A stretch of DNA of 64,000 nucleotides, from positions 4,489,814 to 4,553,813 of the forward strand of contig NZ_CP118164.1 of the NCBI RefSeq assembly GCF_028748185.1, read 5' to 3'. This DNA comes from Bremerella sp. P1 (lineage in GTDB: Bacteria; Planctomycetota; Planctomycetia; Pirellulales; Pirellulaceae). Each line of letters starts with the position of its first letter. Position 1 is the stretch's first letter. The notes below the pieces were generated by a model. The model saw only the letters and a list, made by a program, of their open reading frames with translations, was not told where the DNA came from and did not search any database. A program made the translations under genes and the position numbers. Below are positions 19,601 to 37,452 of this stretch, in pieces.

Positions 19601-19734
19601 ACGTTGGTCATGTCCGGAACAGCATCAATCGGGAGTTTGACGGCCGAATAGAGTCCGGCCCCTGCCATCAACAAAGTCAGGATGATGACTAGGCCGCGAT
19701 TCTTAAGCGAGAATTCAATTACGTGAGTCAGCAT
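16621..19734 (-). CDS. CzcA/CusA-family RND metal efflux pump
   Basis: This 1037-residue protein is a full-length heavy-metal RND transporter of the inner membrane, which exports metal ions from periplasm or cytoplasm using the proton gradient. It has the usual two halves, each with one membrane helix, a large periplasmic loop and five to six further helices. The TM4 signature reads DFGLIVDSSVIMIEN; in this superfamily DFG...VD is typical of pumps for divalent cations (Zn, Co, Cd, Ni), while the Cu/Ag pumps have a different motif, so a divalent-ion substrate is favoured. The membrane-fusion partner gene lies 52 bases upstream. No outer-membrane TolC-type gene is in the operon. Confidence 0.92.
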   Translation of the reverse strand: MLTHVIEFSLKNRGLVIILTLLMAGAGLYSAVKLPIDAVPDMTNVQVQVVTDAGSLSPVEVERYVTYPVENTMGGLPNVEELRSVSKFGISVVTIVFEEGTDVYWARNLVAQRLTEAADNIPEGYGTPSLGPLTTALGEILQFEVRSDRHSPMALRTMLEWDIAPRLREVAGVTEINTHGGYYKTYEVQPDPDRMTSYGITLQTLFDRVKNNNSTSGGGYVVHYGEQRFVRGMSLLGSQQDIEQIVLRREKDGTPILVSDVATVAIEPMTRQGAVTRDGRGEAVTGLVMMLIGENSREVVEASKERLREIEATLPEGVWLEVTYDRAALIGRTLKTVLTNLTEGGLLVIVVLLFMLGSLRAGIVVALAIPLSMMFATNVMAMTGVTASLMSLGAIDFGLIVDSSVIMIENCIHRLSHGSNGKSHLQTIRDAAIEVRKPTMFGELIISVVFVPILLLQGTEGKLFRPMALTVLFALAGSLVLSLTFMPAMASLMLPRKMDEKDVFLVRWIKYIYEPIVVRAIRYSGFTVSIAIAVFLASIPVAMNLGAEFMPRLNEGDLLVEAVRLPSATLEGSISMSTQIESILCEFPEVKTVFSKTGRPEIANDVMGVHQTDVWVLLKPPHDWPEEKTRDELIEEMSQVLNDNVPGVAFGFTQPIEMRVDELVAGVKADVAVLLYGDDLNVLAQKGKEIEAVLRDVPGAVDVKADYQANLSTISIQTQPEQLARYGVDAQTVLDVVSAMGGMPVGQIFEGRARYPILVRIPAEWRENLSLLEQLPVAEAGGSPIPLKELAEIRLEETPPSIEHEANRRRTFVSANVRGRDVASFVNEAQQTVESEIALPAGYEIVWGGDFQNLQSASRRLALILPIVLLIILLLLHTSLGSLRLALLIFLAVPMAASGGIFALSLREMPFSISAGVGFIALFGVAVLNGLVWVSAAEHQRKAGMPLDQISHATALARLRPVLMTALVASLGFLPMAMSTSDGAEMQRPLATVVIGGLITSTLLTSLVVPCIYPWLAKGLPVMEDDDELTDTAFDAA

Positions 19735-19786
19735 AGGAGGGCATTCAATATGGGGACTTGGTCGACAACGCAGCGATCAGCAGGAG

Positions 19787-21277
19787 CTATTCGGACTCGC
19801 CCTCCAGAAGCCATTCGGATTTGAGTAGAAATGCTCCCTGCTCCACCACTTGTTGGCCAGGTTCAAGGCCTTGCTTGACCTCGATCCAATTCTCGGTCTG
19901 AAGCCCGGTCAGAATGGGCACCCTTTGGAATTCGTAATCACCAACCTGGACGAATACATATTCCTCGTCATCGTGTCGCAGGATCGACTCCGGACGGACA
20001 ACCAGCGACGTCTGTGGTTGCCCGATCGGTAGGATGACGCGGACAAACATGCCGGGACGCAGCAGGCCAGTCGGGTTGTCCAACGACGCTACCACCGGAA
20101 TGGAGTTGGTATCTGGGTCGACTTCTCTTCCGACGTACTGTACCCGGGCTGATAGTCGTTCGTTCTCGGCCGCTGGGACGATCACTCCGATTTCGGTGCC
20201 TTCCTGGATGCCAACAGCAGGCCAGTCTTTTTCTCGGACTTCCGCTGAAACATAGAGAGAAGAGGTGTCGGCGAGGACATAGAGTGAATCCGCGCGATAA
20301 ACGCGTTCGCTGGCAGCAAATCTCCGCGACTCGATCGTCCCTGCCATTGGGGCGCGAATTTGCAGAGTGGATAGCATGGACGCGTCATTCTCCGTGTCGG
20401 CGGACTTTACGTTGCCGATCAAGCTTTGCAGCGACTGCTGGGCAATCTGCGTCTTCCGTTTCGCATCTGCCAGATTGGCCGTCGCTTCGCGTTCACCCTG
20501 AGCAACATCGAAGAGGGCCTGGTCTCGGGCGGCCTCGAATTCGGCACGGGCAATCTCGAATTCGGACTGCCGTTCGCGAATGACTCGCTCGGGCATGGCA
20601 CCTGAACCTATGAGCGGCTTGACGTTGTCCCGCAGCTCTTCGGCTAATTGCATCCGCGTATGGGCGGCTTGGATTACCTTTCGTACTTCGCCCAGTTCGA
20701 GGCCTTGAAGCTTCTCTTCGATCTCAGCAGCGGCCAATTCTTCATCTAGTAGTTCCACCAAGCGGCGGACATTCGACGCCACTTCCTGAGCTCGATTGGC
20801 TTCGATCGCACGCAGTTCTTCGTAGGACTTGCAACGCAGCAGCTCCGAACGGGCACTTCCAATTTCCGGACTGGTGATGGTTGCCAACAACTGCCCGGCC
20901 ACGACACGGTCGCCTGGTTGAACGAGCACTTGTTCGAGAACGCCATCGATGGGCGTGCGGACTTCGACATGACGCGTTTCGTCATAGGTGGTCCGGCCAG
21001 GAACGGAATGCGAGTGTTGAATGGAACGCTTCGTCGCGGCATGCGTGATCAGCTCTGCCGAGTTGACCTTGCCGGGGGGCAGTTTCAAGATGTTGTTCGC
21101 AGGGGTCGCTTCCGCTTCGGAGTGGGTTTCCGGCTCGTGGTCTTCAGGGGCCGTACCCATGTGGTGTACTGCCAACCATGCCGCGCCCAGTGTCCCAAAC
21201 ACAAGGATCGGGGGGACGACTTTAGAAATGATTGCGAGAAGACCTGATGGAGTGGTCTGCGGTGTTTGGTCGGACAT
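19787..21277 (-). CDS. RND efflux periplasmic adaptor (membrane fusion protein)
   Basis: The product has an N-terminal membrane segment (about residues 12-38), a His/Glu-rich stretch (HEPETHSEAEA) that could bind metal, and the lipoyl/barrel-sandwich halves of a membrane fusion protein (GVLEQVLVQPGDRVVAGQLLATI and LQIRAPMAGTIESRRFAASERV). Between them is an unusually long alpha-helical hairpin (about 150-310). A beta-barrel and membrane-proximal domain follow. ATG 21277 is preferred; a GTG at 21286 is in frame. It is the first gene of the pump operon and faces a two-component system. It would connect the pump to an outer-membrane channel encoded elsewhere. Confidence 0.9.
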   Translation of the reverse strand: MSDQTPQTTPSGLLAIISKVVPPILVFGTLGAAWLAVHHMGTAPEDHEPETHSEAEATPANNILKLPPGKVNSAELITHAATKRSIQHSHSVPGRTTYDETRHVEVRTPIDGVLEQVLVQPGDRVVAGQLLATITSPEIGSARSELLRCKSYEELRAIEANRAQEVASNVRRLVELLDEELAAAEIEEKLQGLELGEVRKVIQAAHTRMQLAEELRDNVKPLIGSGAMPERVIRERQSEFEIARAEFEAARDQALFDVAQGEREATANLADAKRKTQIAQQSLQSLIGNVKSADTENDASMLSTLQIRAPMAGTIESRRFAASERVYRADSLYVLADTSSLYVSAEVREKDWPAVGIQEGTEIGVIVPAAENERLSARVQYVGREVDPDTNSIPVVASLDNPTGLLRPGMFVRVILPIGQPQTSLVVRPESILRHDDEEYVFVQVGDYEFQRVPILTGLQTENWIEVKQGLEPGQQVVEQGAFLLKSEWLLEGESE

Positions 21278-21389
21278 GCGAAACACTTAGGCGGGTTAGG
21301 GACTTCTTGCCTTCTCTAAAATGACAACGCTTCATTGTCCGTAAGAACCCGCTCTCGTATCAATTCGGGAAAAACCCTTATCTTGAGCA

Positions 21390-21414
21390 GCTTGTCAGGG
21401 TTTTCCTGACAAGC
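21390..21414. promoter_or_regulatory. perfect 10-bp inverted repeat between pump and two-component genes
   Basis: GCTTGTCAGG (21390-21399) and CCTGACAAGC (21405-21414) are exact inverted copies around GTTTT. The site lies about 110 bases before the adaptor gene and 70-170 bases before the kinase gene, the right place for an operator shared by both. It may alternatively act as a hairpin in one of the leaders. Confidence 0.6.
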
Positions 21415-21485
21415 GGAAAGTGGCCCAGAGAAATACGATGAATATGCCCACAGATACCTGAGGGGAAGAGTTTGGCTGATATGAT

Positions 21486-22457
21486 ATGCTTTCAAGAATG
21501 TCGAAGGCTTATTCCTGGTTACCCCGACAGCGATTGGAAAGCCGCCGTTGCTCTGCGGCAATCTCAGAAACGCTAGAAAGCATGAACAATTCTCCACTCG
21601 AAGCGATTCTTCTCAGCCGACCTGTCCGAGTCTCATTTGCGATTCTACTGGTTGTCTTCGTGGCGGAGTTTACGATTATGTTCGTACTCCCATTTGTCCT
21701 GGTCGAGAGCCAGACGTCCTGGAAAGAGGCGGCTGTAGACTCCACTTTGCTGACAATGATCCTAATTCCCTTCTTGTGGTTTGCGATCATTCGGCCGTTA
21801 CAGGAACTTGCGAATATGCGAGCGAACCTGTTAGAGCAGTTCGCTGCGTTGCAAGACGAGGAGAGGCGACGGATCGCTTTTGATTTGCATGATGAGGTGG
21901 GGCAATCGCTCACATCGGTGATGATGGGCTTGAGAGCTTTGGGCGATCAGCCAGATCCTTCTAGTTACCGGCAACGAATCGATAACCTGCGAGAAGTTGT
22001 CAACGGCGCGGTCCATGAAGTACGACGGATCGCCAATGGGCTGCGACCTGCCGCGTTGGATCATCTTGGTTTGCAAGGTGCACTGGAGCGTATGGCTGAG
22101 GATGCCGAGCAGATCCACGATATCGACATTGAACTGGCGATCGAAATCAACGATTGGGACAAGCTGTCCAATCCTCTGCAAACAACCATCTATCGAATCG
22201 TGCAGGAAGGGCTGACGAACGTTGCTCGGCATTCGGGAGCCAAGCTTGTTTTCATTCGGGTAGCTCAACGACGAAGCGAAGTCGTTGTCGAGATCGAGGA
22301 CGACGGTCGTGGATTCGACAAGGACGCAAGGTCCCGTCAAGGCTTGGGCGTATCTGGGATGATCCAACGGACCACGCTGCTTGCCGGTGAATTTAACGTG
22401 TTGGAACGTCCCCAGGGTGGCACCATCATTCGCGCGAGGATCCCGATCCGCTCATGA
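21486..22457 (+). CDS. NarX/DegS-type sensor histidine kinase
   Basis: The kinase core is of the HisKA_3 type: the phospho-accepting histidine is in RRRIAFDLHDEVGQSL, followed by a HATPase_c domain with N-box (YRIVQEGLTNVARHSGA), G1 box (EDDGRGFD) and GLGVSGM. Two membrane segments lie near the N-terminus, separated by only about a dozen residues, so there is no external sensor domain; sensing would happen in the membrane or through a partner. The start is either 21486 or ATG 21582 (MNNSPLEAIL), the latter giving a cleaner N-terminus. It overlaps the response regulator gene by ATGA. Being divergent from a metal efflux operon, it may sense metal or envelope stress, by inference. Confidence 0.88.
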   Translation: MLSRMSKAYSWLPRQRLESRRCSAAISETLESMNNSPLEAILLSRPVRVSFAILLVVFVAEFTIMFVLPFVLVESQTSWKEAAVDSTLLTMILIPFLWFAIIRPLQELANMRANLLEQFAALQDEERRRIAFDLHDEVGQSLTSVMMGLRALGDQPDPSSYRQRIDNLREVVNGAVHEVRRIANGLRPAALDHLGLQGALERMAEDAEQIHDIDIELAIEINDWDKLSNPLQTTIYRIVQEGLTNVARHSGAKLVFIRVAQRRSEVVVEIEDDGRGFDKDARSRQGLGVSGMIQRTTLLAGEFNVLERPQGGTIIRARIPIRS

Positions 22458-23134
22458 ACGACAAGAACAATATCCGTCTCATGATTGCCGACGACCATGC
22501 TGTCTTTCGTGCGGGGCTCAAATTGCTTCTCCAAACGCATGATGACCTCGAAGTCGTGGGAGAGGTCTCGGATGCCGATGAACTGCTGGACGCGGTAAAG
22601 CAGCTCCGGCCGGATGTGCTCGTGCTCGATCTCACGATGCCAGGCGGAAGTACGCTGCCGTTAATTGAGAAACTTCGCAAAGCGATACCGGAAACACGCA
22701 TCCTGGTTCTCTCCATGCACGACGACCTGACCCTGGTCCGAGCTGCTTTGGCCAGTGGAGCAAGTGGCTACGTCGTCAAGGCGGCAGCGGACACCGAAGT
22801 TGTGGCCGCGATTCGAGCCGTTGCGACGGGAAAGGTGTTCGTCGATCTCGATTTAGATGCCAATCAGGTAGGCAGTCTATTAACCGCAGAGAAAGACTGG
22901 TCCGGCAAAGAAAAGGATGGCCCACTGGGGAGTCTCAGTTCTCGGGAGAAAGAAGTCTTTCTGAGCCTTGCCAAAGGGCATACGAATCAAGAGATAGCTG
23001 ACGATCTGGACCTGAGCATAAAGACGGTGGAAACTTATCGCGGCCGGATTGGTGTGAAACTCGGGCTACGTACGCGTGCCGAGTTCGTGCGTTTTGCGGT
23101 CGAGCTGGGACTGATCGGACCAGGCAGCTATTGA
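22454..23134 (+). CDS. NarL/FixJ-type response regulator
   Basis: The 226-residue protein has a receiver domain (acidic pocket in MIADDHAVFRAG, phospho-accepting D in DVLVLDLTMPGG near residue 57, conserved K in YVVKAAA) and a C-terminal LuxR-type helix-turn-helix (LSSREKEVFLSLAKGHTNQEIADDLDLSIKTVETY split over about residues 158-192). Its start overlaps the kinase stop by four bases, so the two form a standard pair. The output is DNA binding; the perfect inverted repeat at 21390-21414 is a natural candidate site. Confidence 0.93.
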   Translation: MNDKNNIRLMIADDHAVFRAGLKLLLQTHDDLEVVGEVSDADELLDAVKQLRPDVLVLDLTMPGGSTLPLIEKLRKAIPETRILVLSMHDDLTLVRAALASGASGYVVKAAADTEVVAAIRAVATGKVFVDLDLDANQVGSLLTAEKDWSGKEKDGPLGSLSSREKEVFLSLAKGHTNQEIADDLDLSIKTVETYRGRIGVKLGLRTRAEFVRFAVELGLIGPGSY

Positions 23135-23429
23135 AGTCAACAGCTTTCATCGTCCAGCGGAGGTGTGGGCAATTCTTTCGTTGGAAAATCTGCCCGTAAT
23201 TTGCAATGAAGGAGCTTCTCGCCTTATTCTCTAGAATCGGCAGTGCGAGTAATTCCTTATTGAAGTAGAATATTCTTACAACAGTCGAGTCGGTTTGATC
23301 TGATCACCATCCTTCCGGTCATGGTCAAGCTCGAAAAGTATGAATCGCTGGCAAGCTTTTCACCTGCTTTTGCTTCCTACCTAGCAACCACGATTCGTGA
23401 TCCTTCCTACCTCGAACCAGGCCTCCCGA

Positions 23430-25850
23430 ATGCGTTTATTGTTCATCACGCTGGCATTCCTCGCCGGTGCGTCGATCGTTTCCGCCGCAGAACCATTTGA
23501 GGCATTTCTTCAGACGCACTGCATCCGTTGCCACGGTCCAGAAACTGTCGAGCGAGACCTGAGAATTGATAAGTTGTCGCGTGATTTCACATCGGGAAAG
23601 GATACGCATCTGTGGGCGGAGATCGTAGAACGAATTAACGCTGGCGAGATGCCGCCGGAGGATGAACCCCAACCAAGTGAAGACGACATTGCGAAGGTCA
23701 TCGCACAGCTCGACACACGTATCCGGGAAGGGCGAGCGGCACGCATGGCCGCACGTCCGCCTGTGGCTCACTATCGGCTAAGTCGGCAGGAGTATCAGAA
23801 CACGGTGTATGACCTGTTAGGCGTCCGCTACGATCCGGCCCAGCCAGGCGAGTTGAATGCGGATCCACTGTGGCACGGCTTCGAGCGGATCGGTTCGCAG
23901 CTCTCACTGTCTCCTTCCCATGTCGAGCGGTACTATCGCGCTTCTGAAATCGTTTTGAGCCGCGCGTTTCCGGAGAAGCCAGTCGAGTCGCAGACGGTTC
24001 GCAAAACAGCGGCGGAAATTCGATATAACGGTGGCCAGCAACAGCAGGCCTATCTTGATCGCTTCGGGATCAAGCGACCGCTGCGTGCGTTGATCTTTCC
24101 TGGAAGAGAGTTGCAGGCCTTGCGCCCGAATTGGTTTGGTGCAGGTGCATCCCAAAGTGGTCTCTACCGAGCGAGGTTACAGGTCAGCGGTGTTCGTCCT
24201 CCTGGTGGACAAACACCTCACCTGCGTATTGGTAAACGCACCGGGGAAGGGACAAACGAAGGCCTGATCGAGTTGGATGTTCTGGCAACAGAAGACGAAC
24301 CGGAAATTATTGAGTTCGAGGTATTTCTGGAAATGCCTACGAGTCTCGATTTCAACGTCGTTGTCACCGACATCATCTCGCGGGACAAAGGTGGCCATCA
24401 TCGTAATATTCTCGGTGGATCTAACTATGTGTTCACGCATACCAGTGAAACGACTCTGCTGAATCCAACCGGCCCCAAGCTCTTCGACGAAGATGGCAAC
24501 GGTATCTTCTCATTTGTGCTATTGGACTGGATTGAGTGGGAGGGCCCTGTCGAGAGTGAAGCCGAGCGGGCAACTCGTACGGATGTGCAGCCGTCTACAG
24601 ATGCATCGCTGGCGGTTGTCACGCAGCATCTCAATCATTTCGCACAACGTGCCTGGCGGAGGCCAGTAACCGACGATGAGCTTCGTCCCTATTTGCATGC
24701 CTACGAGGCCGAGCTGGCCGCTGGCGAAGATATGACTTCGGCTTACCAGATTGCGCTGTTGGGTGTTCTTAACAGCCGTAATTTTACCTATCTTGTCGAA
24801 GGAGATGCCAAGTCCCGCGATCGACTTAACGATTGGGAACTGGCCTCGCGACTGTCGTATTTCCTCTGGAGCTCGATGCCCGATCAGGCCTTGTTCGATG
24901 CGGCCGCCCAAGGGAAGCTAACCAACGACCAGCTTGCCGACCAGGTCGATCGTATGCTTGCCGATCCGAAGATCGACCGGTTCGTCGAGGATTTCCCTCG
25001 TCAGTGGCTACAGTTGCATCGGTTGGGAATGTTTCCGCCGGATGGCAAGTTATATCCGGATTACGACGTTTGGCTGGAAGCGAGTATGCGGGAAGAGGTA
25101 GTTCAGTACTTTCGCGAAGTCTTCGCGAAAAACCTGAGTATTGATCGCTTTATCACATCGGACTGGACGATGGCCAATTCGCGGCTCTGCGAATTCTATG
25201 GCATCCCTGCACCGCAAAAGTCAGGCGTACAAAAGGTGTCGCTACGACCCGAAGACCATCGTGGTGGGCTGCTAACGATGGGCGCGATATTGGGACTGAC
25301 CTCGGACGGTACGCGGCATCGTCCCGTTCACCGTGGTGTATGGGTCAGCGAAGCAATCTTTGGCAAGACTCCGCCTCCACCACCGGCGAATGTCGATCCT
25401 ATCGAACCCAATCCGCCGGACAGCCCAAAAGCGACCATCCGCCAGAAGATTAAGGCACATACCCAGAACGCGAACTGTGCTGCCTGTCATCGAAATATCG
25501 ATCCGCTGGGATTGGCATTCGATCAGTTCGATGCGATCGGCCAGTGGCGCACCCACGAACGTGTTGAAAAAGGAACCGGTGCGGATCCGCCGGTTGATCC
25601 TAGTGGGGAAATGCCCGACGGTCGCACGTTCGCCGATGCCGATCAGTTCAAACAACTTGTGCTGGAAGATCGCGATCGCTTCCTCAGGGGAATGGTCGAA
25701 CACCTTTGCTCGTACGGGTTACGTCGCGTGCTGACGGTCGATGATCAAGAACATATCGATGCGATCGTCGAAGAAGCAAAGCAGAACAATTATCAACTCA
25801 AAGACATCGTGCGGGCTGTCGCTTTGTCCGAGATCATGAAGAAGCGATAG
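23430..25850 (+). CDS. planctomycete cytochrome protein (DUF1587/1592/1588/1585)
   Basis: This 806-residue secreted protein has a signal peptide ([19 protein letters not shown]) and the domain set typical of planctomycetes: an N-terminal PSCyt-type haem site HCIRCH, a DUF1587 region, the DUF1595/DUF1592 middle ([17 protein letters not shown] and [12 protein letters not shown]), and DUF1588 with a second haem motif [15 protein letters not shown], followed by DUF1585. Both CxxCH sites indicate covalent haem c. The physiological reaction of the family is not established; these proteins always travel with DUF1552 proteins, as here. ATG 23430 is chosen because the signal peptide starts there; a GTG at 23397 is in frame. 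Confidence 0.88.
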
Positions 25851-25902
25851 AACTCCGGCAGGCTATCAAGAGCACCTAACTCAAACCTTAAAGAGCTAAA
25901 CG

Positions 25903-27242
25903 ATGACACCATCCTGGCATATCGACCGACGTCACGTCCTGCGTGGGCTTGGTAGTTTCATCACGCTCCCCGTGTTGAACTGCATGCGTCCCGCGTTTGG
26001 GGAAGAACTGGAATCGCCGCGGCGGAGTGCGTTTATCTACATCCCCAACGGCGTCAACACGCTGGACTATCAGATCACCACGCCTGGAGAAGATTACACC
26101 CTTTCGCGTTCGCTCCAGCCGCTGGAGAAGCATCGCGGCGTCATCACACCGATCAGCGGTCTGCACCATCCAGGCGGTCTCGGTCATCATCACAATTGCC
26201 AAAAAATCTGGCTCACCGGTGGCCAACTCGGTCCAACGGATCGCAACACCATATCTGTCGACCAGAAGATGGCCCAGGTAACTTCACCGCATACTCGTTT
26301 TCATTCGCTTGAGATCGCCAACAAGGGCGAGTCGCTGGCCTGGACTGAAGACGGAATCCGGCTGCCGGGCATGAGCCGATGCAGTGAGATCTTCGCTTAT
26401 CTGTTTGAAGAACCTAAGAACGGTACCGCTGCTCAGCGGCGTGCCTTGCGTCGAAAGAAGAGCGTGTTGGACGCCAACTTGGAAGAAGTTCGCTCCCTCG
26501 AAAGAAAGATGGGGAGTGAAGACAAGGGGCGCATGAACCAATACCTGACGGCCGTACGCGAGACCGAAGTTCGCGCCAGAAGAGCGGATGCCTGGCTCGA
26601 TGTTCCACGTCCGGAAATCCTGGAACAGGATCGCCGTCGTACCGACCGAGAAGTACCGCAAACTCAGGCAGGCGATTACTTCCGCACGATTTACGATCTG
26701 ATCGTGCTCGCGTTCCAGACGGATGCTACTCGGGTTGTTACGTTCAGTAGCGGTATCGAAGGACAAGGCCTGCCGATTCCTGAACTAGGGATTTCGCAGT
26801 CGCGACACGAACTAAGCCATCACAATGGCGATCCCGGGCACATGGAAAAGCTCACCCAGAGCGACACGTTTAGTGTCGAGCAGTTTAGCTACTTCCTAAC
26901 TCGTTTAGCCGAGACGCCTGATCTCAACGGTCGCCCATTACTCGAAACAACCATGTCCTTGTTCGGTAGCGGAATGGCATATGGTCACGGCCATGGTAAC
27001 GCCAATCTTCCGCTTGTCTTGGCAGGGGGAACAGGTTGCGGCCTGAAGCATGGTCGTCACATCGATATGAACCAAGGGCACTTCGATGGCTACGAACTAG
27101 ACACGCCTGGCAAGCACTATCACCTCTGTAGTCGCCCGGTCAACACGAACGCCCACATGAGTAATCTTCTACTGACGATGGCACAAAAGATGGGTGTCGA
27201 GGAAGAACGCTTTGGTGACAGCAATGCGGAATTGGAACTAGG

Positions 27243-27246
<4 letters not shown>
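25903..27246 (+). CDS. DUF1552 secreted protein
   Basis: The 447-residue product has a twin-arginine-like export signal ([13 protein letters not shown]) and the sequence features of DUF1552: a YIPNGVN stretch, a [12 protein letters not shown] histidine-rich segment, a long helical region with RSLERKMG..., and an ending [26 protein letters not shown]1552 proteins resemble the DUF1501/alkaline-phosphatase-like fold in outline, but no activity is known. It lies 52 bases after the cytochrome gene and overlaps the following gene by ATGA, so the three form an operon. Confidence 0.85.
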
Positions 27247-28520
<1,274 letters not shown>

Positions 28521-28531
28521 CGGGAACCTCT

Positions 28532-28563
28532 ACGGGCAGCCTAGTAGAACGCTACTTGCCCGT
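28532..28563 (+). terminator. hairpin downstream of the DUF1592/DUF1552 operon
   Basis: ACGGGCA ... TGCCCGT (7-bp arms) enclose a second pair AGTAG / CTACT, giving a two-part stem starting 12 bases after the stop codon at 28520. No long T-run follows. It probably ends the operon transcript and separates it from the small gene at 28727. Confidence 0.5.
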
Positions 28564-28646
28564 GACTGCTTCAGAAGTCTATTTGCGCAACAAGAGAAGC
28601 GTCTTGCGGCCGATTGGTAAAAGCGACGAAGTTGCTTCGAATTTGT

Positions 28647-28676
28647 TTGATCGCCCTAGTTCTCCTGATGCATAAT
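28647..28676 (+). promoter_or_regulatory. possible promoter of the 32-aa gene
   Basis: A weak -35 (TTGATC, 28647-28652) and -10 (CATAAT, 28671-28676) with 18-base spacing lie about 50 bases before the small gene's ATG. The match is modest, so this is only a candidate. Confidence 0.3.
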
Positions 28677-28726
28677 GCCGTGTTAGTGTTCTTTAGCCAA
28701 CGACCAAAGCAAACAAGGACTCAAAC

Positions 28727-28825
28727 ATGGACATCGGCCATATTATCGCGCGGGCTATCCTGCGTCTTGATCTCGTAGGCAGAGATCTTGTTGACTATAT
28801 CATGAAGATCTTCGCCGAAATGTAG
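28727..28825 (+). CDS. 32-aa protein resembling a conserved segment of eukaryotic actin
   Basis: The ATG is preceded by a textbook ribosome binding site (AAGGA at 28715-28719, seven-base gap), and the frame closes with TAG after 32 codons. From residue 10 the product reads AILRLDLVGRDL then VDYIMKIFAE. Conventional eukaryotic actin at about residues 170-193 reads AILRLDLAGRDL then TDYLMKILTE. Aligned by hand without gaps, 17 of 22 positions are identical and the other five are conservative or small-residue changes. The similarity stops at both ends of the frame; the flanking DNA does not continue the actin sequence. It is far too short to fold as actin. It could be a fragment of a captured gene, a mimic or a chance resemblance; see findings. 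The actin sequence is from memory. Confidence 0.6.
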   Translation: MDIGHIIARAILRLDLVGRDLVDYIMKIFAEM

Positions 28826-28888
28826 TGTTTCGCTCTGTCTGAGCAGGCCATCTGGTCTAGCCGCTCCGCAGCCAAGCTTGATGCTTGC

Positions 28889-29044
28889 CTAGTGTTTCGA
28901 TTTGACTTTGTCGTCTTCCAGAATGCGAACCGCAGGTGTCTGTAGGTCATCGAGTTGTCCCTCTCGGACCGACCACACGAACCCCACAACCGCCAGCGCG
29001 GCCATGAAAAGTGCGATCGGTAGGGCGATGTAGATTACGCTCAT
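28889..29044 (-). CDS. ccoS: cbb3 oxidase maturation protein CcoS
   Basis: The 51-residue product begins [26 protein letters not shown] and continues [19 protein letters not shown], which is the standard CcoS layout: one N-terminal membrane helix, then the conserved (G)Q(L/F)DDL...P..RIL.D(D/E) tail. CcoS is needed to insert copper and haem into the cbb3 catalytic subunit. Its ATG overlaps the stop of ccoI (ATGA), and it is the last gene of the oxidase operon. Confidence 0.93.
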
Positions 29045-31533
29045 GGTTTTGCCTGTAGGTGAATGTTTGTCGTTCTAAATGCCCTGTTCGAGGCAGCCAC
29101 GGCCAGCACCGAAAGTGAACTGATGGGCATCAAGATCGCAGCGAGGATCGGATTGATCATCCCCGACATCGCCAACAACACGGCAAACGCGTTGTAGCAA
29201 AGCGATATGGCAAACGTGGTGTGAATCGTGTTCAGGGTTTGTTTGGATCCGGTGATGGCGTCTAGAATGGACTGGACGCCGTCGCGAGTTAGATAGACGT
29301 TTGCCGCCTTGAGACTGGCCTCGGCTCCCCCTTTGACTGCGATACCGACCGATGCCGCGGCCAGTGCCGCGCTGTCGTTCACGCCGTCGCCGACCATTGC
29401 CACCGTCTGGGATGCCGTGGAATTCTGAATGACGGCAAGCTTCTGCTCAGGCGTCAGGTTGCCGCGGATGTTTTTCTCCGCGATGCCAATCTCTTTTCCC
29501 ACGTGCGAAGCCACATCTTGGTGATCGCCGGAAAGGATGCCAACTTCCCAGCCCAAGCGGGCAAGCTCTGCAATCGTCGCCTTCGCGTCGGATCGAATGT
29601 GATCACCTAAGGCAGCCACTGCGACGACTTCATGATTTCGGACGACAAGGACGGTTGTCAATCCGCGATGGTTGAAGTGCTGAATCGTTGCTAGGAAGTC
29701 GTCGGTGATGTAGGTGGATGTGTCGTCGAGCAGCTTTTCAGAACCTACTTGAATGACTTGGCCCTGAACCATGGCTTGAATTCCGATGCCAGGGATAACG
29801 AGGAAGTCGTTCAACGCCGACTGCGGTAGGCGGTCCGCTTCCGCAACGTTCATATCGCTGATCAAAGCCGACGCGATCGGATGGACCGTTTGTCGCTCCA
29901 GCAGTTCGATCGCAGGTTGTATGTCGTGATCTCCGACGAACTCGACCAGTCGCATGCGACCCTCGGTTAAGGTTCCGGTTTTGTCGAGCCAGATCATGCC
30001 GGGTCGGGCCAGGGACTCGAACACTTCCCCCGACTTGACCAGGATTCCTCGGGCGGCGGCCCTTCCCTGGGCAAACGCGACAGAAAATGGAGTTGCCAGG
30101 CCCAATGCACAGGGGCAGGCAACAATCAGTAAGGCCATCGCGTGGTTGATGGCAACTTCCATGCCTGATGACGCCCAGAGTGCCACCGTCACCGCGGCGA
30201 GGATTAGCACGATGCCGACAAAGTAATTTCCGATTCGATTGGCGAATTGAACAATCGGTGTTCGGCTACGAATTTCTTCATCCACGAGTTCGCAAATCTT
30301 GCCAATCCGTGTATCGGTTCCGACCAGAGCCGTTTCCACTACGATCGAACTGCTGATATTGGTACTACCGCTGTAGACACGGTTTCCCTGCTTGGCCGCA
30401 ATTCCACGTGATTCGCCTGTCAAAATCGAAAGATCAACCAGCGTGGAACCACTGACGAGATTTCCATCCACAGGAATCACGTCCCCAGCCCGAACATGGA
30501 TCCAGTCTCCCGGCTGAATCGCTTCGATGGGAACCGATTCTGTAGTCGCATCCGGTTCAGGACGGATAAAACGCGTTACCGCACGAGGAAGCATTGCGTG
30601 TAGCAGGGAGACCTGTCGAATCGCTTGACGCTGCTTCCCATATTGAATGTGCCGACCGACCAGCAGCAGAAAGACCAAAACGGTGAGCGAGTCAAAGTAG
30701 ATTTCGCCCCGCTGCAAAATAGTATTCGCGAGTCCCATGGCAGCGCCGGCTGATAACCCTAAAGCAACCGGCAAGTCCATATGCGATGTGCGTGTGCGGA
30801 TGGCCTGCCAAGCCCCGCGAAAGAATACGGATCCTGGCCATGCCAGGCTAACGAAGGCCAGTCCAGCACTAGTCCAACGAAACAAGTGTAGGAACTCGCT
30901 GCTCATTCCGGTGAACCAGCCGAAATAAAGAGCCACCGCTACCAGCATCGTATTCCCGGCACAGGCACCAGCAATCGCCAGGCGAATAAGTTGCCGATGC
31001 GACTCATCGCGTTCGAGCTTCTCACGTTTGTCGGCCAAGGGAGGAAACGGCGGGTAGCCGAGCCGATCCAGGGTGTCGGCAATTTGCGAAAGGCGAGTTG
31101 ACGCACCAAGCCATTCGATTGTTACCGTCATCGCGGTCAGGTTCATCCGCGTCGTGATGACAGCGGGAAGAAATTCGGGGAGCTTCTCAATCACAAAGAG
31201 ACAACTGGCACAATGCACACCACCGAGAAGAAACTTCGTGCGAAAGACGCCTGGCGAGATCTCTCGTACGTACTTTTCCTGGTAGGCAGGATGATCGAGG
31301 TGCTCGTAGCTTTGAGCTGCCGATTGCTTTTTGACTGCGTTTCTCGACTGCTCTAAGAACTCTGGATCGAACCCGTCAAACTCTTGCAGAATCCGATACG
31401 CCGTCTCACATCCATGGCAGCAGAATTGCTCTTCACTTTGATCGACAACCAAGTGCGCGGGTACCGGCAGACCGCAGTGCGTGCACTCCGTTTCAATCTG
31501 CGGCGATCGGACTTCTTGAGATTTGACAATCAT
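29041..31533 (-). CDS. ccoI: copper-translocating P-type ATPase CcoI (FixI)
   Basis: This 830-residue P1B-type ATPase delivers copper for cbb3 oxidase assembly. It has an N-terminal cysteine-rich metal-binding module (CTHCGLPVP... FCCHGC), a heavy-metal-associated domain with GGVHCASC, the copper-binding CPC in the membrane ([12 protein letters not shown]), the phosphorylated aspartate in DKTGTLTEG, and the hinge [10 protein letters not shown]. The N-terminal double-cysteine module is typical of CcoI/FixI rather than the detoxifying CopA. ATG 31533 is used because the module begins there. It lies four bases after the SafE-like gene and overlaps ccoS. Confidence 0.95.
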
Positions 31534-31537
31534 GGTG

Positions 31538-32323
31538 CTAATCACACGTCGTTTCGCAGTGGCAGCAGGGCAGGGGAGTCGTGCTGGCCTCGTGGATGGC
31601 ATCGGTGGTCGTCTTCGACTGCGACAGGTTGACTTCCAGCGAGTCGAAAACGGCCTGGGCACGAACCGACAGGGTGAATACGCCACTAACAATCAGCAGC
31701 ACGGCCGTCGCCATGGGTAACCATTTCTTCCACGGCTGCGAAAGCTTCTGAATACCGAAGACGAATACCGAGAGCAGCGGAATCGTTCCCAGCCAGAAGA
31801 TCAGCATGACTGCGAGGCCCGTCCAAGGGCTGGAAGTGCCCAGGGCGATCAGGACAAATGCGTACAGCCAACCGCACGGAAGCCACGCCGTGATACCGCC
31901 GATAGCAAAAGCTCGCGTGCTTCCCGATAAGTGTCCAGTCCAGCGAAAGGCCTTCTGGACCAGACTTCCCACTTTCTCCGGTAGGGAAAAGTGAAGCGAT
32001 CCTAGGCGGGAAAATCTCAAGATCGCAAACAGGCCGTAAGCGATCATGAGCGAGCCCGTGATCCATGCCGCGAGTCGCTGAAGGCCCAAGGCACTACCGC
32101 CAACATCGACCAGCGATCCCGCGCCGCCTGCGATCAGGCCTAGCAGAAGGTAGGTCAGCAGACGTCCTACATGGTAGTTTCCGACGGCGAATGATCGCTT
32201 GACGAAGCTCGACGACTCGGACTGACCGGCAAGAATGGCGAACGGTCCGCACATGCCAACGCAGTGTCCACTGCCGGCGAGGCTCGCGGTAAGAATGATC
32301 AGGCCGATCGAAACTGCTTCCAT
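31538..32323 (-). CDS. SafE/DsbD-like membrane protein of the cbb3 operon
   Basis: The 261-residue protein has six likely membrane helices and a GHCVGMCGPF motif in the first one, which is characteristic of the UreH/SafE (DsbD_2-type) proteins often found between ccoH/ccoG and ccoI. Members are thought to take part in metal or thiol handling during oxidase assembly; the exact role is not settled. Unusually, the C-terminus ends in a short cysteine/histidine cluster (PCCHCETTCD) that could bind copper. It follows the ccoH-like gene by two bases. Confidence 0.85.
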   Translation of the reverse strand: MEAVSIGLIILTASLAGSGHCVGMCGPFAILAGQSESSSFVKRSFAVGNYHVGRLLTYLLLGLIAGGAGSLVDVGGSALGLQRLAAWITGSLMIAYGLFAILRFSRLGSLHFSLPEKVGSLVQKAFRWTGHLSGSTRAFAIGGITAWLPCGWLYAFVLIALGTSSPWTGLAVMLIFWLGTIPLLSVFVFGIQKLSQPWKKWLPMATAVLLIVSGVFTLSVRAQAVFDSLEVNLSQSKTTTDAIHEASTTPLPCCHCETTCD

Positions 32324-32325
32324 GG

Positions 32326-32571
32326 TTACTTTGCGTGGGTTGAGTTCGGTTGAATCGGTGACGCGTTTTCATAGTGCACGGCTTTCTCGTAATAGTCCGG
32401 CAGGACGTTAGTCGCCTCGGATTGGACGGCTAAGATAGCCGCGACAACGCACATCACGATCTGCATCACGAGCAATCCGATGACAACGCCTCCCCACAGC
32501 CACTTCGCGTTTACTTCCGCGATCGCGGTCTCAACCGATTGGGGTGTTTCTAAGGTCCGAAGATTTGACAT
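32326..32571 (-). CDS. short FixH/CcoH-like protein
   Basis: This 81-residue protein contains one membrane segment (about 25-49, LWGGVVIGLLVMQIVMCVVAAILAV) followed by the conserved PDYYEKAVHYE motif of FixH/CcoH. Typical FixH proteins are 150-170 residues with a soluble periplasmic domain after this point. That domain is missing here; the frame ends soon after the motif without obvious damage, so this is either a naturally short form or a shortened gene. It overlaps the end of ccoG by 22 bases and precedes the SafE-like gene. Confidence 0.8.
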   Translation of the reverse strand: MSNLRTLETPQSVETAIAEVNAKWLWGGVVIGLLVMQIVMCVVAAILAVQSEATNVLPDYYEKAVHYENASPIQPNSTHAK

Positions 32572-33941
32572 TCGATACTCCGTACATCGCTGGATTGTGT
32601 ACTTTGAATTTGAATCGTGGCGCGAATCTTGCCTACCTGGAAGTCGGAGCGATTCGCGATCACAACGACAGGAATCGTCTTCGTTGCTTTCGGACCAAGG
32701 ACCACTTCCTCGGCAATATCCAACTGCAACGTTTCCGGCAGAATGGTGACATTCAGCCGATCTTCGGTTTCCAGGCGATTCACAATCTTCAATTGCAACG
32801 CATTTTCGACGTGGCCGTCCTGGGCAATCGAAAAGGGAATGCCCACGCCACGAATTAATGTGACATCAAATGTTTTCTTATTGGCGAACGTGACGACCAT
32901 GATCGAGATCACGATCGCAAGCAGGGCTGGATAGACGATGACGCGGGGGCGAAGAAACTTTTGCTTTCCACCTTCGATCGCATCCTGGCTGGAGTAGCGA
33001 ATCAATCCAGTCGGCTTATTAATCTTGGTCATGATTTCGTCGCACGCATCGATACACTGCGTGCAATGAACGCATTCCATCTGCAGCCCGTCACGGATAT
33101 CGATTCCGGTCGGACAAGTTCGCACACAAAGACCACAGTCGATACAGTCTCCCTTTTGATCCACCGGATCCGAAACAATCGGCAGTTCGTTCTTGCGTTT
33201 TCCGCGTGGTTCACCTCGCAGGGTATCGTAGGCAACGATCAGCGAGTTGCGATCCAGCAGGACCGATTGAAATCGCCCGTAGGGGCAAGCAATTAGGCAC
33301 AGCTGCTCACGGAAGAATACGAAGTCGAACATCATGAGTCCGGTGGTCAGTCCCATTACAAGGAATGGTCCCGGATGCTCGACAGGGGACTGCTGGACCC
33401 ATTGGCTCAGCCTTTCGACGCCCACAAAATACGCCAGGAAAGTATGGGCCAATCCCATCGAGAGAACGAGATAAACCGCATACAACGCGACGCGTCGGTA
33501 TGCCGGGACTTTGCGACTGGGGACGCCACCACGCCCGCTGGTTCCCAGAAAGAGGCGTTCCAGGGGACGATAGACGAATTCAAGATAGACCGTTTGGGGA
33601 CATGCCCAACCACACCAGACTCTCCCGAACAGTGCGGTCAACAGGAAGATGGTCAGGAAGATGCCAATCATCAACAACGCGAGAAGCAGTGTATCGGTCG
33701 GCAAGAAAGTGTAGCCGAAGATCGTGAACTCGCGCTGCGTGATATCGAGCAGGATGCTCGGTTTCCCATTGATGTACAGGTGGGGCAAGCCCACGAAGAT
33801 CGCGATCAACAGGAAACCGACAATGCGACGAAGGTACCAGTAGTGACCGCGCGAAAGACGCGGGAACAGCCAGCGACGTGAACCATCAGATTCCAACGTC
33901 GAAAGCACGTGTTCGTCAGGAGTTAAAAAGTCGTCACTCAT
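32550..33941 (-). CDS. ccoG: cytochrome c oxidase accessory protein CcoG (FixG)
   Basis: The 463-residue protein has several N-terminal membrane helices, a CGWACPQ motif, CLIACPYGRFQ, and two 4Fe-4S cluster binding sequences CIDCGLCVRTCPTGID and CVHCTQCIDACDEIM, followed by another membrane helix and a C-terminal immunoglobulin-like FixG domain. CcoG is a copper reductase that prepares copper for CcoI-mediated delivery to cbb3 oxidase. It overlaps ccoP by eight bases upstream and the ccoH-like gene by 22 bases downstream. Confidence 0.95.
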   Translation of the reverse strand: MSDDFLTPDEHVLSTLESDGSRRWLFPRLSRGHYWYLRRIVGFLLIAIFVGLPHLYINGKPSILLDITQREFTIFGYTFLPTDTLLLALLMIGIFLTIFLLTALFGRVWCGWACPQTVYLEFVYRPLERLFLGTSGRGGVPSRKVPAYRRVALYAVYLVLSMGLAHTFLAYFVGVERLSQWVQQSPVEHPGPFLVMGLTTGLMMFDFVFFREQLCLIACPYGRFQSVLLDRNSLIVAYDTLRGEPRGKRKNELPIVSDPVDQKGDCIDCGLCVRTCPTGIDIRDGLQMECVHCTQCIDACDEIMTKINKPTGLIRYSSQDAIEGGKQKFLRPRVIVYPALLAIVISIMVVTFANKKTFDVTLIRGVGIPFSIAQDGHVENALQLKIVNRLETEDRLNVTILPETLQLDIAEEVVLGPKATKTIPVVVIANRSDFQVGKIRATIQIQSTQSSDVRSIECQIFGP

Positions 33942-34620
33942 TTTCGTCTGCCGGTTTGGCTGCTTCCTCTGCTGGGGCTTCTTCCGGAGCAGGTGCCGAC
34001 GTGAGATCGGAAATCTCGTGAATCTCTCCCGGGATGGCCTTCATTCCGGCACCGGATGGTACCGAGCCCTGAAGCGAAAGCAAATATGACGACAACAAAA
34101 CTACTTCATTAGGATGCAGCTTATTTTGCCAGGCTGGCATCGCATTGCCTGCTGCGCCGTTGTTAATCACCTTGGCGATGTCCTCAACCTTCTTGACGTT
34201 CTTCCATTTTTCGTCAGTCAAGTTAGGACCCACGCGACCTTCGGCCTTCGTGCCGTGGCAGGACGTACAATTGGTTTGAAACACGGCCTGACCGACCTTG
34301 AGCCATTTGGGATCGTCGGAAAATCGCAGAATGGTTTCCCGAGTGGGTTGCAGGTCACCGATCTCGGCAAACTGTTGTCGCAAGTTGGCTGCGAATGCGC
34401 GATCGTAGGCGGCGATGATCGAACGATTGGGCGTTATGCCGTTCTCGTAATAGATCCAGTAGCCAATCGACCACAGGATCGACAGGAAGAACAGCATCTT
34501 CCACCAACCAGGCATTGGGTTGTCAAACTCCTGAATGCCATCGTACGAATGATCGGTGAGAGGATCGTTCGGAATTGCCCCATCGTCACCAGGCGGCTTC
34601 GTTTCCGTGTTCATACTCAT
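33934..34620 (-). CDS. ccoP: cbb3 oxidase subunit CcoP with a single haem c
   Basis: The 228-residue protein starts with the CcoP N-terminal domain (FDNPMPGWWKMLFFLSILWSIGYWIYY, membrane anchor at about residues 38-60), then one cytochrome c domain with CTSCH and MPAWQNKL (axial methionine). The C-terminus is a Pro/Ala/Glu-rich tail (EEAPAEEAAK). Most CcoP proteins carry two haem c domains in about 300 residues; here only one CxxCH is visible. CcoP passes electrons from cytochrome c to CcoO. The start overlaps the ccoQ stop by ATGA. Confidence 0.92.
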   Translation of the reverse strand: MSMNTETKPPGDDGAIPNDPLTDHSYDGIQEFDNPMPGWWKMLFFLSILWSIGYWIYYENGITPNRSIIAAYDRAFAANLRQQFAEIGDLQPTRETILRFSDDPKWLKVGQAVFQTNCTSCHGTKAEGRVGPNLTDEKWKNVKKVEDIAKVINNGAAGNAMPAWQNKLHPNEVVLLSSYLLSLQGSVPSGAGMKAIPGEIHEISDLTSAPAPEEAPAEEAAKPADENE

Positions 34621-34790
34621 GAATTTCTCCGCTTGCCGTCGGTAAGGGGAATGTGTGCTTGAGAATCGATGGTCGATTTATCGGTTAACAAGGTGCGGAT
34701 GGTGACTGCTACGAAGACGCCGAAGAAAAGTACCAACGCCGCCGAAGCAATCCAGCCGTACTCCACACTGTTGAGTAATTCGCGAATCAT
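34617..34790 (-). CDS. ccoQ: cbb3 oxidase small subunit CcoQ
   Basis: This 57-residue membrane protein (MIRELLNSVEYGWIASAALVLFFGVFVAVTI... with one helix at about 12-33) lies exactly where CcoQ is expected, between ccoNO and ccoP, and overlaps the ccoP start by ATGA. The sequence itself is poorly conserved in this family, so the call rests mainly on length, topology and position. CcoQ stabilises the assembled oxidase. Confidence 0.8.
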   Translation of the reverse strand: MIRELLNSVEYGWIASAALVLFFGVFVAVTIRTLLTDKSTIDSQAHIPLTDGKRRNS

Positions 34791-34801
34791 GTTAGGTATC
34801 C

Positions 34802-37129
<2,328 letters not shown>

Positions 37130-37185
37130 CGCGTATCTCGTAAACTATTCCCAGTGGATTTGAATTCCCGTTGCACACCCGCTTT

Positions 37186-37201
37186 GGCAAGCGGTGTGCC
37201 A
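37186..37201 (-). promoter_or_regulatory. sigma-54 promoter of the cbb3 operon
   Basis: On the minus strand the site reads TGGCACACCGCTTGCC. It matches TGGCAC at -24 and TTGC at -12 with the required GG-N10-GC spacing. Initiation would be about 45 bases before the ccoNO ATG. The upstream gene cluster encodes an NtrC-type activator. Confidence 0.8.
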
Positions 37202-37452
37202 GAGACGTGCGACAGAACGTCACAGGGCAGAAATGCCTCACGCGATATTTCGCGAATTAAGTGCCTAAAATGAGCTGGCGTGGTTTGAAAACGCTTATGT
37301 GCCTAGTCAAAGCAGCGGAATGCAACCTAAACGGGGTGTCACAATCCGACCCTCCCAGCGGGAAGCCGCAGCGGGCAAAAGAAAAAGAATTTCTCCGGGC
37401 AGCAATGGAGTTTGCGGTCGAAAGCGTTGCTACCAAAAGAATTGTGACAGAG

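What the first reader, a model, noticed from the sequence alone, without database searches (positions are those of the whole stretch)
28727..28825. 32-aa bacterial gene whose product matches a conserved segment of eukaryotic actin
The frame has its own strong ribosome binding site (AAGGA, seven-base gap) and a clean ATG and stop. Residues 10-31 align without gaps to the actin segment around residues 170-193: AILRLDLxGRDLxDYxMKI is shared, 17 of 22 positions are identical by hand count, and the rest are conservative or small-residue changes. This is much closer than MreB, ParM or FtsA to actin in this part. The match spans the open reading frame and stops at its ends, so it does not look like a decayed actin pseudogene with recognisable flanks. 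Options are capture of a eukaryotic fragment, selected mimicry (for example a protein made to interfere with host or prey actin), or convergence. The actin sequence is from memory.
Basis: partly seen in the sequence, partly recalled or inferred. Interest (0 to 1): 0.85.

Follow-up and report, generated by a model that had tools for sequence, protein, structure and literature searches.

The report
Real 32-residue helix gene, actin-lookalike
This bacterium carries what looks like a real, selectively conserved tiny gene for a 32-residue charged amphipathic helix, perhaps a membrane-acting peptide, whose strong resemblance to a piece of actin is most likely coincidence but cannot be ruled out as meaningful.

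Summary
The frame at 28727-28825 is as described, with AAGGA seven bases before ATG. The actin match holds when scored: phmmer against PDB puts actins first, best E = 6.5e-6; 17 of 22 identities at residues 10-31. The gene looks real: one of eight other genomes of the genus has a second copy, also exactly 32 codons, 21 of 32 residues identical, at another place. Of 23 changed codons 12 are synonymous; 0 of 24,964 neutral simulations keep that much protein. A profile of both copies finds actin at E = 4e-9. Both copies sit where gene order differs between relatives, so it seems accessory. No other convincing homologue appeared in 396 order, 397 class and 392 phylum genomes (overlapping samples), or in phage, plasmid and viral collections. 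Best reading: one amphipathic helix with an alternating charge ladder D15-R19-D23-K27-E31, perhaps acting on membranes like TisB (passages). Actin's segment has the same ladder, so the likeness is probably coincidence on shared helix chemistry, picked out of many frames. Descent from actin or mimicry stays possible (about 0.12).

The parts
28727..28825 (+). 32-codon gene for an amphipathic helix peptide (MDIGHIIARAILRLDLVGRDLVDYIMKIFAEM), TAG stop
28715..28719 (+). Shine-Dalgarno-like AAGGA, seven-base gap to ATG; in the second copy (L002) AAGGA lies nine bases before the ATG
   Evidence: sequence
28647..28676 (+). promoter-like TTGATC-18-CATAAT. The second copy also has CATAAT upstream (L002:1450), but the scan reports no plus-strand promoter-like site there and upstream similarity does not beat shuffles
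28521..28884 (.). 364-base junction carrying the gene; the blocks on its two sides lie apart in G007, G004 and G005 (in G003 only the right block was found)
27243..28520 (+). flanking 425-aa gene, no Pfam family at E 0.01; end of the left syntenic block
28889..29044 (-). flanking FixS/CcoS-type cbb3 oxidase maturation gene (PF03597), convergent with the peptide gene; start of the right syntenic block

Best explanation
A real accessory small gene encodes a 32-residue peptide that folds as one amphipathic helix. One face is hydrophobic. The other carries nine charged residues, net -1 here and -3 in the relative, with an alternating i,i+4 ladder D15-R19-D23-K27-E31 present in both copies. The most likely mode of action is binding to or inserting into the cell's own membrane, with self-association through the charged strip, as has been modelled for the 29-residue TisB peptide ('charge zipper'). 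Shown: the coding constraint (from one pair of sequences), the amphipathic pattern, the ladder, the differing sites. Inferred: that the helix forms, that it associates, that it acts on membranes, that the gene moves. The actin resemblance is then convergence or coincidence, since actin's segment carries the same ladder and similar hydrophobic spacing.
For: Second copy of exactly 32 codons in G004, 21 of 32 identical. Of 23 changed codons 12 are synonymous; differences by codon position 12/7/17. 0 of 24,964 stop-free neutral simulations reach 21 identities. Hydrophobic moment 0.52, rank 1 of 474 short frames in the window; 24 of 20,000 shuffles reach it here and 82 of 20,000 for the relative. 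AlphaFold2 from a single sequence: one helix 3-31, best model mean pLDDT 96.3, five models 83.0-96.3. Five-charge ladder in both copies, reached by a share of 0.0007 and 0.0006 of 50,000 shuffles each; the test was made after the ladder was seen. Holding the charges in place and shuffling the hydrophobics raises the mean score to the actin segment from 18.8 to 45.3. G004's copy lies in 4,954 bases where G000 has about 430 and G003 about 980 between the same flanks; GC 0.497 against 0.553 and 0.588. TisB: passages of PMC11449926 and PMC8309996.
Against: No experiment shows expression, membrane binding or toxicity. TisB has five charged residues and net +1; with nine charges this helix may stay on the surface or be soluble. 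The charge-zipper model is contested: PMC11449926 reports a charge swap that contradicts it for TisB (passage), and the title of PMC5601993 says in vivo experiments do not support it for Tat (listing). Charge pattern does not explain the whole actin score: 0 of 6000 charge-keeping shuffles reach 94 (maximum 75). Of the 19 positions in 4-31 identical in both copies 14 equal actin, against 4 of the 9 variable ones for the window copy (counted), the direction that an actin link would predict. Upstream similarity is no better than shuffles (308 and 521 of 1000). No antitoxin RNA or unusual RNA fold was found.
Confidence: 0.5

Rival explanations
1. Soluble small regulator: the helix docks on a partner protein (coiled coil or groove binding) and does not act on the membrane.
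For: Nine charged residues, net -1 and -3, and a salt-bridge ladder that would suit a stable soluble helix.
Against: A whole hydrophobic face of Ile/Leu/Val/Met/Phe and the top moment in the window. No shared neighbour that could be the partner: DNA of the G004 region has no match to the window at E 0.001 (nucleotide level only).
Confidence: 0.25
2. Actin-derived or actin-mimicking peptide: the gene descends from an actin fragment, or was selected to copy actin residues about 168-195 so as to act on actin of eukaryotic neighbours or on a bacterial actin-like filament.
For: Actins are the top hits: best E = 6.5e-6 for the window peptide, 0.0026 for the relative alone, 4e-9 for the two-row profile. 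The relative has 14 of 22 identities, 13 at the same positions. No shuffle of 6000 in any of three schemes reaches the score. Of 19 positions kept in both copies 14 equal actin (counted). An actin-like gene distant from MreB is described in another planctomycete, 'Ca. Uab amorphum' (abstract and passages of PMC6906331).
Against: No PF00022 match at E 0.001 in G000 or G004; 9 of 100 family genomes match, all rows lying in frames of 359-802 aa. V17, V22 and I25, where actin differs, are kept in both copies, while A10, I11, Y24 and I28, where the window copy equals actin, are not. One continuous helix is predicted. The match was picked from many frames, and the two copies are related, so the profile is not independent evidence. 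Secretion signals were not tested with a tool; no delivery gene was seen among the four neighbouring frames of G004 and the neighbours in the window given to Pfam.
Confidence: 0.12
3. Not a gene: the two frames are related non-coding DNA or a chance pair.
For: Only two copies known; upstream regions not conserved above shuffles.
Against: Same start, stop and length in both, many synonymous changes, and failure of all 24,964 neutral simulations; E = 7.1e-7 for the second copy in its genome.
Confidence: 0.06

Closest known systems
Type I toxin TisB of Escherichia coli (works-like comparison)
   Same: Very short peptide (29 against 32 residues), amphipathic helix, alternating positive and negative charges along a narrow strip (passages of PMC8309996 and PMC11449926).
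   Different: Nine charges and net acidic here; no antisense RNA found; toxicity unknown. TisB's own sequence was not compared; no match in Pfam, NCBIfam or PHROGs.
Eukaryotic actin, residues about 168-195
   Same: 18 of 28 identities, including the ladder D-R-D-K-E.
   Different: An isolated 32-residue peptide and not a 375-residue ATPase; predicted as one helix; N-terminus largely without match to actin but partly kept in the relative.
Actin-like protein of 'Candidatus Uab amorphum'
   Same: A planctomycete gene related to actin and distant from MreB (abstract and passages of PMC6906331).
   Different: An actin-like protein gene in another organism; this genome has no PF00022 match at E 0.001. 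Not compared by sequence.

Membership tests
Actin family (PF00022) | Match to the Pfam actin profile | tested here: not met
   No Pfam family for the peptide even at E 10; no PF00022 match in G000 or G004
Actin family (PF00022) | Nucleotide-binding actin fold with its phosphate and adenosine motifs (recalled) | tested here: not met
   Only 32 residues, predicted as one helix
Actin family (PF00022) | Sequence similarity to actin above chance | tested here: met
   E = 6.5e-6 single, 4e-9 profile against PDB; weakened by selection of this frame from many
Type I toxin peptides (TisB-like) | Short amphipathic or transmembrane helix | tested here: met
   Moment rank 1 of 474, predicted helix 3-31; membrane insertion itself not tested
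Type I toxin peptides (TisB-like) | Antisense RNA antitoxin | tested here: inconclusive
   No Rfam match above gathering (one at E 0.97); no minus-strand promoter-like site in window 28400-29200, one in L002 1300-1800 where 0.5 sites are expected over both strands. A trans-encoded RNA was not sought
Type I toxin peptides (TisB-like) | Structured, translation-repressed mRNA | tested here: inconclusive
   Folding z-scores -0.82 and 0.05 over leader plus frame; AAGGA fully paired in the window fold, at most partly in the relative; transcript starts are assumed
Type I toxin peptides (TisB-like) | Growth arrest on overexpression | not testable with these tools
   needs an experiment

The most novel reading that the evidence does not exclude
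A mobile bacterial gene encodes a stand-alone 32-residue copy of actin residues about 168-195, by descent or by selection, that acts on actin or an actin-like filament of a neighbour.
Probability: 0.1. Interest if true: 0.85.

Novelty: new member of a known kind. Interest (0 to 1): 0.4.

Why it matters
It points to a selectively constrained gene far below usual annotation length, and shows how a startling similarity to a famous eukaryotic protein can arise from helix chemistry plus a large search. If the actin link were functional, it would be a stand-alone bacterial actin mimic of about 30 residues in an environmental lineage, of a kind I do not know of (recall, plus the one listing).

Tried and rejected
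Chance open frame: rejected because of the second copy and the codon pattern.

Decayed actin pseudogene: no support; PF00022 finds nothing in the six frames of G000 at E 0.001.

Sphingomonas hits of the core pattern (2 stretches over genome contigs): in L038 the core lies in a 263-aa frame antisense to an 896-aa frame that I recognise as translation initiation factor IF-2 (name recalled). Taken as chance; L039 was not examined.

G958 hit (E = 0.0015): it lies among long overlapping frames, one of which I recognise as an RND transporter (name recalled). Taken as chance among 392 genomes.

Weak order-wide hits (159 of 396 genomes at E up to 1): E-values are per genome, so many near 1 are expected; after G000 and G004 the best is 0.0094. 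Their loci were not examined one by one.

Conserved promoter: CATAAT stands upstream of both copies, but the upstream alignment does not beat shuffles and the scan reports no plus-strand site for L002.

Leader peptide of a downstream gene: possible in G004, where a 134-aa frame starts 16 bases after the stop, but in the window the next gene is convergent.

Known small-protein family: none in Pfam, NCBIfam or PHROGs for either copy. The padloc library was not searched.

Full report
What is there. The frame at 28727-28825 on the plus strand reads MDIGHIIARAILRLDLVGRDLVDYIMKIFAEM and ends in TAG. AAGGA stands at 28715-28719, seven bases from the ATG. It lies between a 425-aa gene without a Pfam family and a FixS/CcoS-type cbb3 oxidase maturation gene on the other strand. 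The tools did not name the organism.

Is it a gene? A search of the 9 held genus genomes finds it in this genome and in one other, G004 (2 of 9; one of the misses, G005, is 68% complete). The G004 copy reads MGIGDIIMDFVLRLDLVGRDLVDVIMKLLSES, again exactly 32 codons and TAG, with 21 of 32 residues identical. Counting the stop, 10 codons are identical, 12 changed synonymously and 11 changed the residue, with 12, 7 and 17 differences at codon positions 1, 2 and 3. With 36 changes placed at random at the observed share of transitions, 0 of 12,656 and 0 of 12,308 stop-free simulations reach 21 identities; the means are 11.5 and 12.0. Synonymous distance is saturated, so I give no dN/dS ratio. This is strong evidence for selection on the protein, though from a single pair.

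How widespread? The two-row profile finds only G000 and G004 convincingly. In 397 class genomes it gives 2 at E up to 0.005; in 392 phylum genomes 3, the third a weak hit among long frames. In 396 order genomes 159 have some match at E up to 1, but after the two copies the best is 0.0094. These samples overlap. The G004 peptide finds 2 of 241 family genomes at E up to 0.2; the window peptide finds 17 of 241 at E up to 1, of which 15 are 0.16 or worse. The phage and plasmid collections gave no match, nor did three patterns over viral contigs. One pattern over the species genomes gave two Sphingomonas stretches; in the one examined the core is antisense to a long frame. Pattern scans need the exact core and would miss diverged relatives, and 32 residues is a hard length for any search.

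Where does it sit? The window is collinear with G007 from 17896 to 28520 and again from 28885 to 37233, but these stretches lie about 1.5 Mb apart in G007. In G004 they lie on different contigs; in G005 about 0.6 Mb apart on one contig; in G003 only the right block was found. The block that follows the 425-aa gene in G007 also follows it in G004, but was not seen in the G005 stretch; beyond the FixS/CcoS gene the relatives share only short pieces. So the window's order is perhaps derived, and this is a place where gene order varies. The gene lies inside the 364-base junction. In G004 the copy lies in 4,954 bases between flanks that are about 430 bases apart in G000 and about 980 in G003. For four other genus genomes the left flank was matched, but the right flank did not appear within the stretch held. 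Whether G004 gained DNA or the others lost it is not settled. GC is 0.497 in that stretch against 0.553 and 0.588 in its flanks; the window junction is 0.503 against 0.547 for the window, but 12% of stretches of that size are as low. I read this as an accessory gene that moves. I did not search systematically for mobility genes (four frames of the G004 stretch went to Pfam), and repeats were sought within each edge but not between the two edges.

The actin match. phmmer against PDB gives actins as best hits at E = 6.5e-6. The G004 peptide alone gives actins at 0.0026, the two-row profile at 4e-9. Identities over residues 10-31 are 17 of 22 for the window copy and 14 of 22 for G004, 13 of them shared. 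The ungapped score is 94; with recalled Karlin-Altschul constants this is E = 1.7e-10 for one 375-aa target. Against the actin segment, 6000 full shuffles reach at most 45, 6000 shuffles within residue classes at most 68, and 6000 that keep the charged residues in place at most 75. Gumbel extrapolations are 1e-11 for the first and 1e-6 for the second; they are rough and use a segment chosen after the fact. A PDB search with 25 of 60 class shuffles joined into one 800-residue query has 0.037 as its best E, to a chain named SG135. So the resemblance is unusual for a peptide of this make-up. But it was picked by a reader scanning many frames: 474 complete frames of 24-48 aa exist in this window alone. 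At several in a million per frame, a survey of thousands of windows could be expected to meet some such match; the number of windows is unknown to me. The profile value of 4e-9, taken at face value, would not be explained that way; I discount it because its two rows are related to each other.

What the identities are made of. The peptide has the highest helical hydrophobic moment of the 474 short frames, 0.52, and is first of the 46 with a ribosome-site-like motif. AlphaFold2 from the single sequence gives one helix over residues 3-31, mean pLDDT 96.3 for the best model and 83.0 for the weakest, pTM 0.50. D15, R19, D23, K27 and E31 form an alternating ladder at i,i+4 spacing, complete in both copies and in the actin segment; shuffles reach it at 0.0007 and 0.0006, in a test made after seeing it. 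Keeping the charges in place raises the mean shuffle score to actin from 18.8 to 45.3, about half of 94. Against this reading, 14 of the 19 positions in 4-31 that are identical in both copies equal actin, and 4 of the 9 that vary do so in the window copy; for it, I6, I7, V17, V22 and I25 are kept in both copies where actin differs (counted). Two sequences are too few to decide. In actin this stretch is a strand followed by a helix (recalled).

Likely function. I commit to a membrane-associated amphipathic peptide at about 0.5. The closest mechanistic model is TisB of E. coli, a 29-residue inner-membrane peptide with alternating charges on a narrow strip, modelled to assemble through salt bridges (passages of PMC8309996 and PMC11449926). 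The second paper reports a charge swap against that model, and another paper argues by its title against charge zippers in Tat (PMC5601993, listing and start of abstract). I do not file it as a type I toxin: no antisense RNA, no unusual RNA fold and no toxicity are shown. A soluble helix that docks on a partner is the main rival.

Literature. Searches for actin with short open reading frame, bacteria and mimicry (40 papers, 10 listed, none of the 10 titles on this), planctomycetes with small proteins, amphipathic and toxin-antitoxin (0 papers) and Pirellula with small protein and ribosome profiling (0 papers) gave nothing on this gene; I saw listings only. In the planctomycete 'Ca. Uab amorphum' an actin-like protein is described that groups with eukaryotic and Asgard actins (abstract and passages of PMC6906331).

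Noticed in passing
window 28521-28884: A chromosomal junction: the 425-aa gene block and the cbb3 maturation block are about 1.5 Mb apart in G007, on different contigs in G004 and about 0.6 Mb apart in G005.
   Followed up: partly
L018:9491-14444: 4,954 bases in G004 where G000 has about 430: a cysteine-rich 110-aa frame, the peptide gene, a 134-aa frame, a PAS/AraC regulator, a 366-aa prepilin-like frame (label recalled) and a protein with a sub-threshold Peptidase_Mx1 match.
   Followed up: partly
window 28823-28840 and 28890-28907: Two similar 18-base stretches (83% identical), one at the stop of the peptide gene and one at the 3' end of the FixS/CcoS gene; possibly a trace of how the junction formed, possibly chance.
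   Followed up: no
window 28614-28778 (+): Overlapping 54-aa frame from a TTG start that reads like a membrane or signal segment in another frame; coding status not tested.
   Followed up: no
L066 about 1501-1566: A 389-aa frame antisense to a transporter-like frame contains LRLDLVGDNLAD, a near copy of the core motif, apparently by chance.
   Followed up: partly
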